This document shows positions 2,335 to 48,339 of a stretch of DNA of 48,963 nt, piece after piece (positions within the stretch are counted from its first letter, which is position 1; each line of letters opens with the position of its first letter). Where the stretch lies: positions 1 to 48,963 of the IMG/VR virus record IMGVR_UViG_3300008107_000180. One strand, written 5' to 3'. This stretch comes from a virus. Position numbers and translations under genes: made by a program. The notes under the pieces are model-generated. The model was not told the origin of the DNA, did not search any database, and worked only from the letters and a program-made list of their open reading frames with translations.

Positions 2335-5300
2335 TTATTTTCTAAAACTTTCTTGAGCTTCTCCTTTATTAATTAAGTTAGTAACTGCTGTTGTAAGAGG
2401 TAACAACTTAGCTCCTTTCCATAACAACTTACTATCACCAGAATGTTTACCAGATTTATATTCTCCATTACCTTCTAATGTATCTACAAAACTGTCACTA
2501 AATTTAGCAAAATCTACAATTATACTTGATACAGGAAGTGCTGATCTAGTTATATTATCAAAAGCCATAGGACTATAATAAAACTCAATATCATCTTGTA
2601 ATCTAAGTATTGTGTTAAGACTATAGTTTTTAGCTCTTCTAGTCCATTCATCATCATCGTCTAGTCCAGATAATAACATGAACATACCCATCATAGAAAG
2701 TTTGAAATAAATCTCTCTAAGATTCTTCTTCATGTTTTCTTTTACTATATTTAGATTATCTTCTTCTAGATTTAAATCTTTAAAAGAAGAATCTTTACCT
2801 CTAGTAATAGCTAATTTCAATAAAGTTTTTAGTGAATTTTTCCAACCTAAATCGTAATATGTTAAGTATCTACCTTTAGTTGTTCTTTCTAGATAGTTAT
2901 CATACTTTTCTCCATCAAATCTTTGAGCAACACCTTCTGGAATCCATCTTCTAAATTGAATTAAAGCACGACCTACAAACTTCTCATTAATAGCTATATT
3001 AGCATTAGGATCGTAGTTACCATGTATCTTTTTCAATAAGCTATCTAACTTGAACTTGAATTTTAAAGTGTTAGCTCCTAACTCTGAATACTCTGAATTT
3101 TCTCCAAATTTTTCAGTATTCCAATTACCATTTTCATCAAATGCTTCAAATAAGCTTATTTCTTTTTCTACTCCATCTTCTGTTACTTTTACTTTAGTAG
3201 CATTAAGTAATGCCACCATAACTTGACCTTGTACAAAATATTCACCTTGTGCATATAACTCATATGGAGATAATTTTTGAAGTCCTTTTCTAGCTTTGTT
3301 ATAGTTAGTTGTAGCACTATATATTTTATCTCTAAGTTGTTTTACTGTATTAAATTTAATCATTAAAGATTCAACCTTTTTTCTTGTAGAAGAATCATTT
3401 GGAGATTGAGCAATTAGCATTGTACCAATTGCTTTTTGTAAATCATCATCTGAATAATCAACTCCAGTTGCTGCCCAGTTAGCATTAGCTAATTGACCAA
3501 ATAAAGCATTGTTTACTCCACCAAATATATTCCAACCCATACCTTTAAGTTGAGTATATTGTAATAAAGTATCACCTACTTTTGACCAAGTTAAAACTCT
3601 AGTATATTTTTCTGTAGCTTTACTTATAGCATTTGCTTTCTTTACATCTGTCATATCAGATGCTTCAATTTTTTGTATTTCTCTTGCTAATTTTTCTTTA
3701 TCTGCTGATGTTATAAATTGAATATTTGATCTACCTTCTTTATTATCTTTCTTTATTCCATATAAACCTGCATCTATTGCATAATTAAGTTGACTTCTTA
3801 AATTAGCTAATCCTTTTGTAGTTGTAGTTTTACCAACTTTATCAGTTTCTAAAGCATTATCTAATATAGATTGAGAAAGTCTTATCTTATCTTCAATTTG
3901 AGATTTATGTTTATATCCAATTGCTTGTGCTGCAAATAATTTAATTACTTGAGTAAGATTATAAGATTTATCTTTTGGATCTAATTCTTCTAAGTATTGA
4001 AAACTAAATTGTTTTTCTTCTTTACCTGTCTCTGGATTTACAAGTTTTTGTACTTCATTTTTCTTAACACTAAGTTCTTCTAATAAAGCACTCCAAGTTC
4101 TATTTGCATATTTGTTTATACCAGTATCATGTAACTCCTCAAGTAACTTCTTGCTTATTGAAGGAATATCAGTTGATTTAAGATTCTTTCTAACATTATA
4201 CGGTAAGTATTCATTCAACTCTTTCATTGTAGATACATACCAATCGTAATATTCTTTTAAATCATCATTTTTTTGAAGTTCATTATATTTAGAATCTTCC
4301 CATTGAGATTTAGCTCTTTTAGATATAAATTGCCATCCATGATTATATATAATTTTTCCTTCACTCTTTCTAATAGTTAATCCATTTACTAAGTTATCAA
4401 TGTAGATTAATGGACTATTTTCTAGTTTCCATGTTTCTAATATTCTAGCTGCATCAGGATTATCTTTAGTAGCTTCTATTTGCAATCTTAACAAATCATT
4501 ATATTCTTCTGTCTTTTCTTTTGCTTCTTTAATTACTTTTTGATAATCTTCACCTAATTCTTTTTCTAATGCTTGTAGATATTTTGCATCTGGTTTATAG
4601 ATAAATATACCATCATTATCTTCTTGATACAATTTGTTTGGATCAACTATAATATGATTTTCTTTTATCCAATTATAATACTTTTCTGATGCTTTTTTCT
4701 TAGCTCCAGGATTAGGTGCATCTTTTATGTTCTCTAATAGTAAATCTCTAACTCTAAAATATTCATAAGATAAAGCACTTACTACTGAACCTGTTAGTTG
4801 TCCATCTTCATCTACTTGACCAAATACTCTAGCAAAATCCTCTCTTGAAGTAATGTTTAATTTAGATAATTTTTCAGTTAAATCTTCTACTCGTTTAATT
4901 AGTTTATTTAATTCTGTAGTTGTTGCAAAATCAGCAGTACGAATTAATTGATCTACTACATCAAGAATTACATTATTAGATGTAGATATATCTCTAGTTT
5001 TTGATTGAGTATATCCTACATCAGAATGTACAGTTAATTGATCTCTTGATACATTTCTTTTTAATAAATCTTGCACTAATTGTATTTCTACTTCTATTTT
5101 TGCTTCTTCAATTCTTGTATTTAATCTTTTAGCTTTTTCAGCTATTTCTTTAAATATAATTGCTTTAGGTGATTCAGTTCTAACATCATAACTAGATAAA
5201 ATTTTATAAATATCTATGTTATCTATATTAGACCAAGTACCTAAGTATAAAGAACTTCTTTCTAATTCACTTTCATTTAACTCTGGTTTTGCTAAAATAG

Positions 5301-8300
5301 ATTCTATATATTTAAAATCATTATTAGCAAACTTAATTAAAGTTTCTAAAGTGTTATCTGCAATTAGTTCTTCTTTTTCTAATCTTATTTCTTTTAATCT
5401 ATTAGTAAGTGTAGTAGCTAAAACTTTATCTTTGTTTGCATTTGCTTTAGTTATATCTTCACTAATTCTTTTTTCTCTTACTTCAAAATCTTTAATTACT
5501 TTTTCATAATTCTTTTGTTCTTCTTTCTTGATTTTCTTTTCTGCTAAATCATAGAAAATTTGTTCATCTTGAGTTGTATTATCTGACTGTTGATTTGTTT
5601 CATTTGTTAACTTAATTAACTGAACAAATGCTTCTTCAAGAGCTGATCCTTTATTAATATTAACTAATTTACCAAACTTATTAAGTATCTCAGATATTAA
5701 ATCTATAAATCTATCAAGTAAAGATTTATCAGCATCATAAGGTATAGAATTTAATAAATCTCTAAATTCTTCTTGTAATAAAGCATCATGTAAGAAATCT
5801 TCTACATTAGTTAAGCCATAAAACTTTGCTTTATTAGTAAGTAAAAATTCATTCTCTTGATCTGTTACTCCTTTTTTACTTCTAAGTTTTGCTAATATAC
5901 TTTCGTATTTAATAAAATCAGCACTATTCCATTGAGTAAGTTCTCCAGATAATACTCTTTCTCTTATAGAATTGTATAAAGTATTTATAGCTGCTCTAGC
6001 TTGTATTTGCTCTGGTGTAGGAGTAAATTCTGATCTAAATAGTTTTGTATTAAGAACATGTACAATCTCTTTTAATATTGTAGATTCTACAGTTTCTCTA
6101 TTTAATCTTCCTTTATCTTCTAATTCTTTTAAACTTACTCCGATAGTCTTTTGATCCCATCTACCAAAGTAACCTACTTCTTCTGTAGATTCTATTTTAA
6201 TATTTCCTATAATACCTTCTAATTTCTTAAATAGATTAACTAGTTCTTTATGATATTTATTATTGTTTATATTAGATAATGCTTCTGATACAGTAACATC
6301 TAATATACCATCAAACTCATCTTCTACAAAAGGATTAGGATAAGTCTGTGGATTATTAACAGTTTCTCTTATTTGAAAATCTACAGGATTATCTACTTTG
6401 TCTTGTTGATATTCATTAAAGAATTTCTTACCTAAAGTTGGAATAGAACGATAGATATAATTACCATCTTCATCTCTATTATCTAGTTTATATAATTTCT
6501 TATTTAAATTAAATACAACTACAGGTTTTGTAGAACTAGCAGATATTAATTCTCTAGGTATTTTTTCTTTATTAATAGTTATTACTCCGTCTTTTATTTT
6601 AACATCAGCAGTATTATTTAATCTAACTGTTAAATAAGGTTTGTGTTGAAATAATTGTAATAGTACATCAGAAATTTCTGGTTTATAACCATAAGTTTCT
6701 GGTATAGAAAAGTTTACTGTTTTTGCAAATTCTGATAATCCTATGTTGGTAAGCATAGAAGCATCTATAAATCTACCCCAATCTTTCGAGTTAGTTATAC
6801 CTCCATTAAGATAAAAATATCTAATTAAATCTTGTCCTATTGATACTATCTCTGGATCTTCATTATATACTAATTCATAGAAACTCTTGTAAGTATTTAA
6901 TTCTTCTATATCAGCTTCTTTTGAAGAATTATAAAATACATAAGAAGGATTTTTTCCACTTAAATCTACTTTAGATAAATCTAATCTTAAAATAAATTGA
7001 TTATTTTTAAGTTTAGTTTTTCTTAAAGCATTTATTCTTGTATTTAATGATTTGTTATCTTTACCATCAAAGAATATTCTAGTTCTTTCAGTAGGATCAA
7101 AGTAGTTAGAGAATATAAAAGCTTTTATAGCTTTCCATACTTCATATTTTTGATCAGTATTAGGTTCTTTGTTTGTAATACTCTCGTATTGTTTTAGTAA
7201 CTTTTTAAATTCCTCTGTTGAGTAAGGCATTAAGTTAGAGTTCTTAATTACATCATCAGCAGCAAATATTGAATTTGTAAGTGCATAACCAGTAATAGTA
7301 TTAGGAGTCAATTCTCCTTCATCAAATTCACCAACTAATTTGTTTATATTTTTAAACTGAATTGAGTTAAATAATTTATCAATAGAAGTTCTTCTATCAG
7401 ATAAATCTAATAAACTTTTACCGACTCCTTTAGATTCTATATTTAATAGATTCTGAAATCTTGATAACTTATCTCCTATTTCTTTAAGTTGTGCAAACTT
7501 TTGTAAAACTAGTACTTGAATTTCTTCATTAGTTAAGTCAGTTTTACCTTCATTAAATAAAACTTGATTAAAATGATTTTTAGATAATGGATAATTTTCT
7601 AGATCATCCATTTTAAGTTTAGTACTTAATTCGTTGTATAGTACACTATTTTCTTTTATAAGATCAAGTAATATATCTTCTTCTTTTTTTACTTCATCTT
7701 GTAACTTACTTTTACTTAATTTTACTCTTTTTGTATATTCTTTAAGTATTGGTTGAGCAAGTAATCCATATATCTCATCTTCTTCTAATCCTAAATCAAG
7801 CATTAATGTTAATGCAGATGATGTTGCAGGATTTACGTTAATATAAGATAATATAGGATTGTTACCATTATCTACAGATGCAGATTGAATTGATTGATGA
7901 AGTTCATTTTTCTTTCTTCCAGAATATGTAAATGCAGAACTTAAATCTGAAAATTCTTTTATTTTACCGTCTACCTCAAAAATTATATAATTTGGTACAT
8001 ATTGTTTTTCATCATTTATAACTACTACTTTTTGTAAGGATATTTCTTTTCCTTGTAATAGCGTACTAAATGTATTACTTACAGAAGTAATACCAACCAT
8101 AGCTTTACCATCTACTGATTGTAAATATTTGTTTTTAGAATAATCAGGATTAAGATAATTTTCTTTATTAGTATTCTCTTGTTTTTTTATCTTTTCAGCT
8201 ATACCACCTTTCTTGCCATCAGCAGTTTCATAACTAATTTTTCCTAAATCAAGAGGTTTAACTACTGATTCAAATACTGATTTGTTATATAATACTGATT

Positions 8301-11300
8301 TATGTATATCAACTAATTTATTTTTTGCATCATCTTGTTTAGAAAGATTACCTTCTTTATCTGCATTTAAATAATAGTTATATACATATAGCTTGTCAAC
8401 ATCGAAATCTGAACCCATTTGAGTTACAAAATTTCTACTTGCAATTACTACACCTTGATATATATCTGGTAAGAATCCAACTATTTCTATCAATGACATA
8501 GAATTATGTCCTTGATTTGGTATTCTAAATCCAAATTGATTTAATAATTCTTTAGGTATTTTTTTAGTATCTAGGAATTTATTACCTTGTTCATCTGTTG
8601 TGATATAATCATTTTGATTTAATAACTTTCCATTCTGATCTCTCAAGTTCCAAGACATTATAACTTGAGCAGGTTTTACAATTTCTCTATATCCTTCTCT
8701 ATCAGCTTTAGATAATTTTTTATATTCTTCTTCTTCTAATTGTTCAGTATCTTTTTTATAAACAATCCTCATAGGTTTTAAACCAGTAGCAGGATCATAA
8801 GATTGAGAATATAAAGCGCCTACTGATTTTCCTTGCATACCTTCTTCTGATACAAGTACATAAGAACCTCCAGGCATCTTTTGCTTCAAGACTTTGTTAG
8901 TCCAGATAGAAGTAAGCATTGATTGCTCTTTATCATTATTTGTGTGTGCCCAAAAAGGTATTTCAAAATCTGTATTTTCTAAGTTACTTATTAAGAAACT
9001 TATTTGAGCAGGAGAATAATTTCTTTTAATACCTTCTCCTTTTAATAGCTTTATTAGTTCTGGTTTATTAAGTTGTCCATTCTTTACTATTCTTTTTTCA
9101 ATAGATTTCAAACCATCTTCATATATTTGATTTTGTAAATCATCATATATTTTCTTTAATTCTTGTCCACTATATACTTTATTATCATATCTAAAACCAG
9201 ATACTTCTTCAATACTATCAAATAATAATTTAAGTACTTGAGTTGATCTTACAGTTTCATCTTTAGTTTCATCATAAGGTATTTCTTGTTGAATACCAAA
9301 GTTACTTCTATCAAGTTCTACTGCATAAGATGTTAAATCTAAATCATCTTTTATAGTTCCATCTGTATTCCAGATATTAATACTTTGCTTACCTCCTAAT
9401 TTAGTAGCAGTATTAAATGCAGCACGTACAGATTTACTAGAAGAATTTTGTAATTTCTCCATAGCTACTCTAAGTTTATCTATTTCTAAACCTTGAGTAA
9501 ATTGAGGAATTAATGGTAATGATGAAGATTTAATATATTCTCTATATATTGTATCATCTTCTTTAGAGACTATTCTTGAAGAATATACAGGTTTATCAGA
9601 ACTAAATAATATTTTTTCTAATTCATCTTTTGTAAGTACTAAATTATTTCCTTGAGTTTTGATTTTCTCTAATAGATCATTATATAATTTAGTAGAGATT
9701 TCTCCATACATATACATTACTTTTAATTTTTCAGTTAAAGTAATATATTCTTGAGCATCTGTTCCTTTAATAGCATCGTAAGGAAGTCCAATATTATTAT
9801 CTTCATAATATTTTGACAATCTTGCAGCTAGTTGTGCATTGTTTAATGCAGATGATTCTATATCAGCTAATTTTACAGATAAAAAATATTTATTAGTTGA
9901 ATCTATCATACCTTCTTTAAAAGGTGCGATAAGATTAGTTAATCTTTTACCAACGTTATCCCAAGTTGTAGCTACATCAGTTTTGAAATAAACAGCAGGA
10001 TCATCAATAAAAGTTTGATGAGAATTAAATTTAGCTAATATACTATTAACAATATAATCAGCAGCAGCTAATGTTAATTGATTATTTTGATCATCTGTTT
10101 GAGAAGCAAGTATCTTTTGTAAGTAATTATAATCTACTAACTTTAATGTTTGAGAACTAATACCTAATTCTTTCCATTGTTGTAATTTGTTAGATACATC
10201 ATTTTTTATGATGCGATTTAATTCTTCTTTTATGATTTGTTCTACTGTCTTATCTCCTATTTTATCAGTAGGTAATTTAACTGTAGTTTTTTTACCATTT
10301 TCATCTTTATTAAATATTAGATCATTTAATGTAGGAAAGAAAAAGAAAAAATTAGAACCTTTATTGTATGCTTTGTTTTCACTTTTTCTTGCTTGTTGAG
10401 AAAGTATTCGATTGTGCTCAGATGCTACTACAGAATATAACGCATCTATTGTTCTCTTTCCTATTCTATATCCTTCTTTATCAAAAAATAATTTAACATC
10501 TATTCCAGTTCCTTGTACTACATAAGATGTAGTTTTATCAGGAACAGTTATAAGATATTTTATGATTCTAGTTCCTTTTGTATCTTCTCCTCCAAGACCT
10601 TTCTTTCTACTTCCAGAATTTTGCATTAAAGCAAGTTGAGTTATTTCTAAGTCTAAGTCTGACATAGAACTTAACTTAGTTCCATCTTTACCTACTTTTA
10701 AAGTATCTAAAGGTGAAATAGTAAATATCTCTTTAAATAATTCTGGTTTAGTATCTCTTAAATATAACCAAGTATCATATATAGGAGTTTCTCCGTTAAA
10801 TATCGGTTTGTTAAAAGTAATATCTAATAATGATTTTACATGATTATCATCATTAAGTATCTTGTTAAATTCTTTAGTTAAGAATTTATTAAATGTATAG
10901 GAATAAACTGTATTACCTTCTCCATCTTTAAATGTATTAGAGTAATAGCTTTCGTTATTATAAGAATCTAATTTTGCTAATGCTCTTATTGCTGAATTGT
11001 TTACAGTAGGATCATTAACAATTGTTTCTTCATCTAATTCGTTAAATTCATCTTCTCCTTCTTTTACTTCTTTAGCTCCTAATCTAAGATCAATTAATTT
11101 AAATAAACCTGAATCAGAAGTAAATTGTTGATTAATTGATAATCTATTTACAACTCCATTTACTAATCTATCTAAAGTATTATCTGAAATAGTAATACCT
11201 ATCTTTTCTAATACTTCTTTTACATTTTCTAATGTAGGTTCTTCTTTAATTTCTTTTAATCTCTTACGATATTCTTCTACCTTCTCTTTTGATAAAATCA

Positions 11301-45415: not shown

Positions 45416-45654
45416 ATTGTAAGTTTACGACATATATATCTTGGAAAAAAATTTTTTTATAATTTTTTAAAAATGATTCGTATATATGGGTTAGACCTAT
45501 CAAAAAAATTTTTTATATAATTTTTTATTTTGTTTGTATATTTAGATGGAAGTACCTCCCCCACACAATGCCCCCTACAAAACTTTGGGATGGAACTACC
45601 CGTCATCAAGTTTCGTTCGTAAAATAAATCGTAAAACCTTAAAAAACAATAACT
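45416..45654. promoter_or_regulatory. Divergent intergenic region with tandem A/T-tract elements and direct repeats
   Basis: The gap separates minus-strand and plus-strand gene arms. It holds two copies of an A7-T6/7-(AT)-T6 element (45445-45468 and 45502-45526, 57 bp apart) of the kind that bends or melts easily. To the right, a locally GC-rich stretch carries the imperfect direct repeat GATGGAAGTACC (45545-45556) / GATGGAACTACC (45589-45600). Divergent promoters are certain in principle but no clear -33/-7 pair was found, as would suit phage-polymerase promoters. An origin is possible. Confidence 0.5.
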
Positions 45655-45957
45655 ATGATTACTGAAAACATCGTATCTCGCAAAAATGTCGTTAAAGACA
45701 GCAAAGAACTAGTATTAGTTACTACTGCATCAGGTGCAGAAATTTGGGTTCCAAAGACTCAACTAAATGATGCAGCAGAAACTGTATCATTTAATGTACA
45801 CAAAGCTGGTTCTACATGGACTAACAGTAAAACAGGAGCAACTGGTGTGCGTAAAGCTGATGCAACTGAATACATTGGTTGTGGTCGCATCAACAAGTTT
45901 GCTATCTTGGACTATCTCAAGTCACAAGGAGTAACACCAACATTTACTTTGGGTTAA
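45655..45957 (+). CDS. Small, probably highly expressed early protein of unknown function
   Basis: The 100-residue protein begins MITENIVSRKNVVKDSKELV, with LVTTASGAEIWVPKTQLND near 20-38 and FAILDYLKSQGVTPTFTLG at the end. Codons are more balanced (CGC, GTC, ATC) than in neighbours, a sign of high expression. It is the first plus-strand gene after the divergence, with an A-rich leader ending AAAAAACAATAACT. A terminator-like hairpin follows at 45965-45995. It might bind DNA or RNA as a small beta-barrel, but I recognise no family. Confidence 0.6.
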   Translation: MITENIVSRKNVVKDSKELVLVTTASGAEIWVPKTQLNDAAETVSFNVHKAGSTWTNSKTGATGVRKADATEYIGCGRINKFAILDYLKSQGVTPTFTLG

Positions 45958-45962
45958 TAAAT

Positions 45963-46049
45963 ATGAGAGTTGTAGCTATAATGGTTATAACTCTCTATTT
46001 TATTGTTATTGGCTACGCGTTGACACACGAATTAAAACAATTAGAATAA
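45963..46049 (+). CDS. Possible 28-residue membrane peptide
   Basis: A frame of 28 residues begins MRVVAIMVITLYFIVIGYAL and ends THELKQLE: a single hydrophobic helix with a short charged tail. It begins 5 nt after the stop of the 100-residue gene. Against it, the start lies in a hairpin (GAGAGTT 45965-45971 with AACTCTC 45989-45995) that is followed by TATTTTATTG, so the same bases may simply be a terminator. Confidence 0.35.
   Translation: MRVVAIMVITLYFIVIGYALTHELKQLE
45965..46003 (+). terminator. Terminator-like hairpin after the 100-residue gene
   Basis: GAGAGTT (45965-45971) pairs with AACTCTC (45989-45995), with an inner TATAA/TTATA pairing, and is followed by the T-rich TATTTTATTG. 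It lies 8 nt past the stop codon. It overlaps a possible small membrane-peptide gene, and either reading could be right. Confidence 0.5.
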
Positions 46050-46230
46050 AATATAGTATCAGCTATATATTAAAACTAATAATCTCTCTGATAGGAGATT
46101 GGGAATATGCTATGCCCCGTAGCTATTGATAATATCTTGCGCATTAAGATATTATACAGAAAATACAAAAAAATAAAAGAATGTAAATATCAAATTAGTT
46201 TTGCAAGACTAGTTTGATTGCCTTTTATTT
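46050..46230 (+). ncRNA. Candidate small RNA: four tandem hairpins plus terminator
   Basis: Between 46050 and 46410 I see no credible gene. Four adjacent hairpins tile 46051-46155. They are ATATAG/CTATAT (46051-46068), AATCTC/GAGATT (46081-46100), AATA-GCTA/TAGC-TATT with a one-base bulge (46104-46127), and a 10-bp ATAATATCTT/AAGATATTAT (46129-46155). The terminator-like stem at 46191-46216 follows, and a fifth perfect hairpin (TATTTTAC/GTAAAATA) lies at 46236-46261. The rest, 46262-46410, is AT-rich leader with nothing I can assign. No promoter was identified. Confidence 0.5.
46191..46216 (+). terminator. Strong terminator-like hairpin with TGCA tetraloop
   Basis: CAAATTAGTTT (46191-46201) pairs over 11 positions (two G-U) with AGACTAGTTTG (46206-46216) around a TGCA loop, followed by ATTGCCTTTTATTTT. 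This is suitable for intrinsic termination on the plus strand. Confidence 0.7.
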
Positions 46231-46410
46231 TATAGTATTTTACAGAATAACACGTAAAATATGTGATTAACAGTATGTTTATGTTTTGCTACTCGTTATA
46301 ACTCTCCTTTAACCCTCAATATTACACGAATTATCACTAACCTAATATTATCAATCTATATATTAGCAATCTTTCTCATAAATTAACAGAAACTAACCAT
46401 AAAAACTAAC

Positions 46411-46623: not shown

Positions 46624-46654
46624 TTTCGAGATTAGTAAAAACTTAATATCTTTG
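46624..46654 (+). promoter_or_regulatory. Bacteroidota-type promoter
   Basis: TTTC (46624-46627), 19 nt, then TATCTTTG (46647-46654). The -7 box matches TAnnTTTG exactly and the -33 box differs by one base from TTTG. It should start transcripts near 46660 through the genes at 46861 onward. A long imperfect palindrome begins in the -7 box. Confidence 0.65.
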
Positions 46655-46860
46655 CAGTCTAATACGTACACTAATAATGTATCAGTATTAGCTGCAATAG
46701 ATATTATAATATTAAAATTAGATTAGTAGCATTAAGATAGAGTGGCTACCTAGATTAATAATAATCTTCTGGTGTTATTAATTGCTAGTTTAATTCCAAC
46801 ATTGTAGGACAATCGAATCTACCTAATTTTATTAACACAACAATCTAAACAACAAACAAG
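46655..46860 (+). other. Structured 5' leader of the 143-residue gene
   Basis: The 200-nt leader has an extended hairpin, GCAG-CTAATAC/GTATTAG-CTGC with inner TACA/TGTA (46654-46695). It also holds GTAGC/GCTAC (46726-46749) and CTAG-ATTAATAA/TTATTAAT-CTAG (46750-46788). The last 30 nt are A-rich and unstructured, leading to the ATG. Together with the promoter this looks like a regulated leader; no known riboswitch was recognised. Confidence 0.45.
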
Positions 46861-47785: not shown

Positions 47786-47787
47786 GA

Positions 47788-48339
47788 CTTAACTCTTCTG
47801 CTTGAAGATAAACACATCAAGACTTGTTCTTAAAAAGCAATAATGAGATGGTCTGTTCTAGCAGTTAATGTTTGTTGTAGAGATAGTATAACGCAGGAAC
47901 AATAGAAATATTGGGAAAATAGCCTGACTGCTATTTCAACTAGAAATTTGGACAGAAGAGTTATTAACTATTAAAATCAGCTGTTTAATCAGCAAAATAC
48001 TTATGCACATCTGTTAATAAGCTCATTACTTATTAAAATCTGATTATAGTAATATAATTAATGAGAGAGGTTAAATTAAGGATAATGCCAGAAAGCTCCT
48101 TATAAGTATTGATTTTGAAAAAGGTTTTTACGTTGGTAATAACAATTTTATGGCTTTAAATGTAGCTATCATTAGGTGCATCTGGAAACGATGCAGCTAC
48201 CAACTGTAAAGACTGAAAAGAAATAGATTGGTAGTAGGGATTAACAAATATAGGAGTGTCCTTGATGCTTGATCAAATATGTAGACTGCCTTGAAACTAT
48301 GTAACTACCAATCTTATTTTAAACTAAAATTAAAACAAC
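47788..48339 (+). ncRNA. 552-nt gene-free region with four tandem structured RNA domains
   Basis: I find no credible coding frame. There are four closed domains. (1) TAACTCTTCTG/CAGAAGAGTTA, 11 bp (47790-47800, 47953-47963), encloses CTTGA/TCAAG, TGTTC/GAACA and a 7-bp AAATAGC/GCTATTT. (2) AATACTTAT/ATAAGTATT, 9 bp (47996-48110), encloses an 8-bp hairpin whose loop CTCATTA matches TAATGAG at 48059-48065. (3) A continuous 3' strand 48190-48204 pairs with TGCATC, GTAGC and GTTGG. (4) AGATTGGTAGT/ACTACCAATCT, 11 bp (48225-48314), sits 26 nt before the next ATG. It may be one large RNA or a riboregulatory leader. Confidence 0.5.

What the first reader, a model, noticed from the sequence alone, without database searches (positions are those of the whole stretch)
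46050..46230. Candidate early small RNA of four tandem hairpins ending in a terminator
Four hairpins tile 105 nt with almost no spacers and are followed by an 11-position stem with a TGCA loop and a T-rich tail. There is no credible frame. This is the layout of a discrete regulatory sRNA, possibly a protein- or nuclease-titrating decoy made in the early arm next to the transcription divergence.
Basis: partly seen in the sequence, partly recalled or inferred. Interest (0 to 1): 0.7.

Follow-up and report, generated by a model that had tools for sequence, protein, structure and literature searches.

The report
Structured phage RNA before a terminator

Summary
Four hairpins (46051-46068, 46080-46101, 46104-46127, 46129-46155) are followed by a 33-pair terminator-type hairpin (46160-46241). 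The + strand folds far better than shuffles (z -5.6, 0 of 200; opposite strand -2.1). Most of that signal is the terminator (z -5.9); the four hairpins alone are modest (z -2.6, 1 of 200). 'No credible frame' needs a correction: a 36-aa ATG frame spans 46107-46217, but a 1-nt deletion truncates it to 22 aa in the sister contig.

The phage is Crassvirales. The segment lies between the first + strand gene (plus a 28-aa membrane-like ORF) and the next small operon. A TTGACA-16-TAGAAT box ends 3 nt before hairpin 1, though Bacteroidota phages need not use that promoter type.

RNA-model searches of relatives, including one with a complete syntenic arm, found no homologue. Nothing supports a titrating decoy.

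Best reading: a lineage-specific, untranslated, terminator-ended RNA, either a discrete sRNA or a structured 3' UTR. In passing, a neighbouring RNA (47787-47972) proved conserved with covariation in three phages and is the stronger lead.

The parts
45655..45957 (+). first + strand (putative early) gene after the divergence, 100 aa, no family match
   Evidence: short ORFs in the same place in L139 and L147
45963..46049 (+). possible 28-aa single-pass membrane mini-ORF MRVVAIMVITLYFIVIGYALTHELKQLE
   Evidence: a 29-aa mini-ORF of similar character in L084 at 2620-2709
45965..45995 (+). hairpin with T-rich tail directly after the first gene, in the position of the simple terminators of L139 and L147; overlaps the 28-aa ORF
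   Evidence: relatives
46020..46047 (+). sigma-70-type box TTGACA-16-TAGAAT, 11/12; the only match this good on the + strand of the arm (0.24 expected in shuffles of the whole arm)
46051..46068 (+). hairpin 1; its UAUCAG apex is complementary to the loop of hairpin 2
46080..46101 (+). hairpin 2, loop CUGAUA
46104..46127 (+). hairpin 3
46129..46155 (+). hairpin 4, 11 pairs
46107..46217 (+). 36-aa ATG frame inside the structure, truncated to 22 aa by a 1-nt deletion in the sister contig; probably not a gene
46160..46241 (+). 33-pair terminator-type hairpin (core 46189-46218, loop TGCA, T-rich tail); A-rich 5' arm makes it look bidirectional
   Evidence: reverse-strand self match

Best explanation
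It is a lineage-specific small untranslated RNA of about 180-190 nt. Transcription would start near 46053, just after the first + strand gene unit, run through four short hairpins and stop at the strong intrinsic terminator 46160-46241. The hairpin-packed RNA would be stable and act by its shape, for example by binding a host or phage protein, rather than by long antisense pairing to phage messages. Shown: the hairpins, the terminator-type hairpin, the + strand bias and a promoter-like box at the right distance. Inferred: a discrete transcript, early timing, and any action in trans.
For: Fold z -5.57 on the + strand against -2.1 on the - strand; gap-wide + z -4.84, - z -0.94. Terminator hairpin z -5.9, 0/200. 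TTGACA-16-TAGAAT, 11/12, ends 3 nt before hairpin 1; about 0.003 such sites expected in any given 60 bp of the + strand. In two relatives the first gene is followed at once by a simple terminator, and the window has a comparable hairpin at 45965-45995, so the structured block looks like an additional unit. The contained ORF is broken in the sister contig while the four 5' hairpins are unchanged. Best pairing with phage translation starts is no better than for shuffled RNA, which argues against antisense action on phage messages.
Against: No transcript data. The E. coli-type promoter is not the usual Bacteroidota promoter (TAnnTTTG; own knowledge), and none of that type lies just upstream. The four hairpins alone are only modestly better than shuffles. 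No homologue in any relative, so no covariation. The block could equally be a 3' UTR of the first gene unit.
Confidence: 0.42

Rival explanations
1. It is the structured 3' untranslated end of the first early transcript (100-aa gene plus 28-aa ORF). The hairpins protect the message and the last one terminates it and insulates the next operon. Nothing acts in trans.
For: The block begins right after the 28-aa ORF stop (46049) and ends at the terminator. In L084 an 85-aa gene is followed by a hairpin and a GGGGATTATTCCCC-TTTTTT terminator (fold z -6.3). L139 and L147 have a simple terminator in that place.
Against: A terminator-like hairpin already follows the 100-aa gene at 45965-45995, and four hairpins plus an 11/12 promoter box are more than a 3' UTR needs.
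Confidence: 0.33
2. The palindromic DNA matters only as a terminator (or as DNA), and the four upstream hairpins are chance folds in AT-rich sequence.
For: Most of the folding signal is the terminator; the four hairpins alone reach only z -2.6, 1 of 200 shuffles as good. One of the two changes in the sister breaks a terminator pair.
Against: Strand asymmetry; loop-loop complementarity of hairpins 1 and 2, matched by only 17 of 1000 shuffles.
Confidence: 0.12
3. It encodes a 36-aa basic peptide (46107-46217) whose ribosome site (AGGAG in hairpin 2) and start codon (hairpin 3) are held in hairpins.
For: Open frame with ATG 9 nt after GGAG.
Against: A 1-nt deletion truncates the frame to 22 aa in a 99.6% identical contig; Bacteroidota rarely depend on Shine-Dalgarno sites (own knowledge).
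Confidence: 0.07
4. A protein- or nuclease-titrating decoy RNA, as the first reader suggested (a special case of the sRNA reading).
For: Several hairpins in a row; early-arm location.
Against: The hairpins share no repeated loop or stem motif; no partner known; TROVE (Ro60) absent in 22 related records.
Confidence: 0.06

Closest known systems
Phage-encoded small regulatory RNAs with an intrinsic terminator (general kind; own knowledge, e.g. IpeX and DicF of lambdoid elements)
   Same: Short, untranslated, hairpin-rich RNA ending in a terminator, encoded in a phage
   Different: No sequence homology tested or known; no transcript or target shown here
Structured 3' UTR and terminator of early phage messages
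   Same: Position right after a short gene and its ORF stop, ends at an intrinsic terminator
   Different: Four extra hairpins and an apparent second promoter
Y RNA / YrlA RNAs bound by TROVE (Ro60) proteins
   Same: crAss001 early genes are reported to include a TROVE protein (PMC8375218)
   Different: No closing stem joining the 5' and 3' ends here, no YrlA match over its cut-off in six related records, no TROVE gene in 22 related records

Membership tests
Phage small regulatory RNA (discrete sRNA) | stable secondary structure on the transcribed strand | tested here: met
   z -5.57 on +, -2.1 on -
Phage small regulatory RNA (discrete sRNA) | intrinsic terminator at the 3' end | tested here: met
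   33-pair hairpin 46160-46241 with T-rich tail
Phage small regulatory RNA (discrete sRNA) | own promoter | tested here: inconclusive
   11/12 sigma-70-type box at 46020-46047; promoter type of the host and phage polymerase unknown
Phage small regulatory RNA (discrete sRNA) | no translated frame | tested here: inconclusive
   36-codon frame, broken in the sister contig
Phage small regulatory RNA (discrete sRNA) | conserved in relatives | tested here: not met
   model R1 matches only the window and its 99.6% identical sister; conservation supports but does not define an sRNA
Phage small regulatory RNA (discrete sRNA) | discrete transcript | not testable with these tools
   needs RNA-seq of infected cells
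Any Rfam family | score above the gathering threshold | tested here: not met
Y RNA / YrlA | TROVE-domain partner encoded in the phage group | tested here: not met
   PF05731 absent in 22 records, control positive
Protein-titrating decoy RNA | repeated binding motif | tested here: not met
   four different stems and loops

The most novel reading that the evidence does not exclude
The early arm of this Crassvirales group carries a set of distinct structured RNAs (46050-46241, 46652-46807, 47787-47972, 48108-48224) that work as early non-coding effectors on the host. The reported one would be the fast-evolving, lineage-specific member, possibly folded by a loop-loop contact between hairpins 1 and 2.
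Probability: 0.2. Interest if true: 0.65.

Novelty: new member of a known kind. Interest (0 to 1): 0.33.

Why it matters
I found no report of non-coding RNAs in the early module of crAss-like phages in the few papers searched. If the RNA is made, it adds a non-coding early product to phages whose host takeover is poorly understood. The conserved neighbour at 47787-47972 gives a concrete family to look for in RNA-seq of relatives.

Tried and rejected
Rfam at gathering and at lax thresholds: nothing above chance. BLAST against phage records: none. A 16-mer of hairpin 3 in IMG/VR: chance matches apart from the sister contig. RNA model R1 over relatives and six complete named phages: only the sister; the weak cr3_1 match (E 0.05) lies across the end of a tail sheath gene. 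Antisense pairing to phage translation starts: same as shuffles. TROVE/Y-RNA idea, suggested by crAss001 early genes: not met. The exonuclease gene as a guide to relatives gave phages that lack this capsid. Two folding scans of the window: one with shuffles timed out, one done without shuffles; the intergenic gaps were then tested with shuffles. Paper searches for decoy and sRNA gave nothing on these phages.

Full report
What the window is. The - strand genes include a capsid protein matching Pfam Crass_capsid (E 7e-54), a crAss muzzle protein and a large terminase and capsid whose best relatives are crAss-like and Flavobacterium phages, so the window is a Crassvirales fragment. An exonuclease gene lies on the terminase side next to the strand divergence; crAss002 also has a PD-(D/E)XK exonuclease upstream of its terminase. 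Genes switch to the + strand at about 45.6 kb. In crAss001 the early genes sit at the right end of the genome and are expressed first; in the related phage phi14:2 a similarly organised operon is transcribed by a virion-carried polymerase (PMC8375218). 'Early' for this arm is inference by analogy.

The observation. The four hairpins and the TGCA-loop hairpin are at the stated coordinates. 46030-46250 folds at -50.8 kcal/mol, z -5.57 with 0 of 200 shuffles as good; the opposite strand has z -2.1. The sister contig's copy has z -4.98. Taken apart, the terminator hairpin 46160-46241 (33 pairs) has z -5.9, and the four 5' hairpins alone z -2.6. So the terminator hairpin is firm as a predicted structure, while the hairpin cluster is significant but not extreme. 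Among the intergenic gaps of the window, 45958-46410 shows + z -4.84 against - z -0.94. In a scan of GC-corrected folding energy it is among the most structured + strand places.

Surroundings. 45655-45957 is a 100-aa gene without family match, followed by a 28-aa membrane-like ORF 45963-46049. A hairpin with a T-rich tail, 45965-45995, follows the 100-aa gene directly. In two relatives, L139 (capsid 67% identical) and L147 (69%), a short first ORF is followed at once by a simple terminator. The best sigma-70-type match on the + strand of the arm, TTGACA-16-TAGAAT (11/12), ends at 46047, 3 nt before hairpin 1. Chance gives 0.24 such sites per arm, so the position rather than the existence is suggestive. 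It lies inside the 28-aa ORF, and Bacteroidota promoters normally look different (own knowledge). The segment after the terminator, 46242-46410, is unstructured (z +0.6) and G-poor (12 of 169) and leads to the next small ORF.

Coding. A frame from ATG at 46107 is open for 36 codons. In the sister contig (99.6% identical over the 453-nt gap) one A is missing in the A-run and the frame stops after 22 codons. The only other change in 46048-46244 (a G to C in the 3' outer arm of the terminator) breaks one pair of that stem. Two sequences this close cannot test the structure by covariation.

Relatives. A protein search with the 100-aa gene found only the sister contig. A covariance model of the region found only the window and the sister among 25 loci, 24 records, five more early-arm stretches and six complete named phages. 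L139 carries the syntenic arm and lacks it. The approach is not blind: in the same arm a second RNA model (47787-47972), built from the window and L139 after a BLAST match, went on to find a third copy in L148. The reported RNA is therefore lineage-specific or too fast-evolving to detect. A model from two near-identical sequences is weak for distant homologues, so absence is not proof.

Mechanism. I weigh two readings nearly equally: a discrete sRNA from its own promoter (0.42), and the structured 3' UTR of the first gene unit (0.33). For the first, the RNA would act by shape; pairing with phage translation starts is no better than shuffled RNA, and host targets cannot be tested because the host is unknown. 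The loop of hairpin 2 (CUGAUA) is fully complementary to the apex of hairpin 1 (UAUCAG); 17 of 1000 shuffles show a loop-loop match as long. I noticed this after the fact, so it is a lead only. The decoy idea lacks a repeated motif or a partner. The TROVE idea, prompted by crAss001, failed its test.

A neighbour worth more. 47787-47972 is a conserved RNA, with copies in L139 and L148 (capsid 64%). On the three-sequence alignment 97.8% of cells pair and 7 pairs change on both sides, values reached by 1 of 500 shuffles; sliding the partners by 1 to 3 columns drops pairing below 50%. That alignment was fitted to the model, so the count leans towards the structure. The closing stem AACUCUUCUG/CAGAAGAGUU becomes AAACUUCCUG/CAGGAAGUUU in L148. 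The window copy has no Rfam match. The L148 copy contains a tRNA-like element (ARAGORN tRNA-Pro at 5638-5714; Rfam tRNA-Sec 18 bits, below cut-off).

Noticed in passing
window 47787-47972 (+); L139 9710-9908 (-); L148 5550-5755 (+): Conserved structured RNA in three Crassvirales early arms, with a covarying 10-pair closing stem whose 3' side is followed by a T-rich stretch in two of the three; window copy not in Rfam. The L148 copy carries a tRNA-like element inside.
   Followed up: partly
window 48108-48224; L084 5640-5738 and 5822-5968; L089 3130-3250 (-); L096 6690-6805: Second apparent RNA family: stem GTTGGTA/TACCAAC followed by CTGTAAARACTGA, identical 28- and 25-nt blocks in L084, two copies there.
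   Followed up: partly
window 46647-46807: Another structured gap (fold z -2.6) with a Bacteroidota-type TATCTTTG box at its start; a similar TATCTTTGCAGT occurs in L084 near 8530.
   Followed up: no
window 45592-45607; L139 rc 7175; L147 rc 3176: Motif close to GGAACWTACCCGTCAT just before the first early gene, shared across relatives with looser versions in L140, L149 and L150; candidate promoter or replication element.
   Followed up: partly
window about 47411; L083 5551-5657: The window lacks about 106 bp present in the sister contig, which fuses two small ORFs into a chimeric 86-aa frame.
   Followed up: partly
L139 rc 9848-9985 and L147 rc 4850-4950: Shared RNA-like gap with closing stem ATAACTCTC/GAGAGTTAT and an inner hairpin CAAGGTGCAACCTTG.
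   Followed up: no
L084 4841-4937; L140 1988-2331 (-): ARAGORN calls a tRNA with a 4-base anticodon gtac, and a tmRNA, in related phage contigs; unverified.
   Followed up: no
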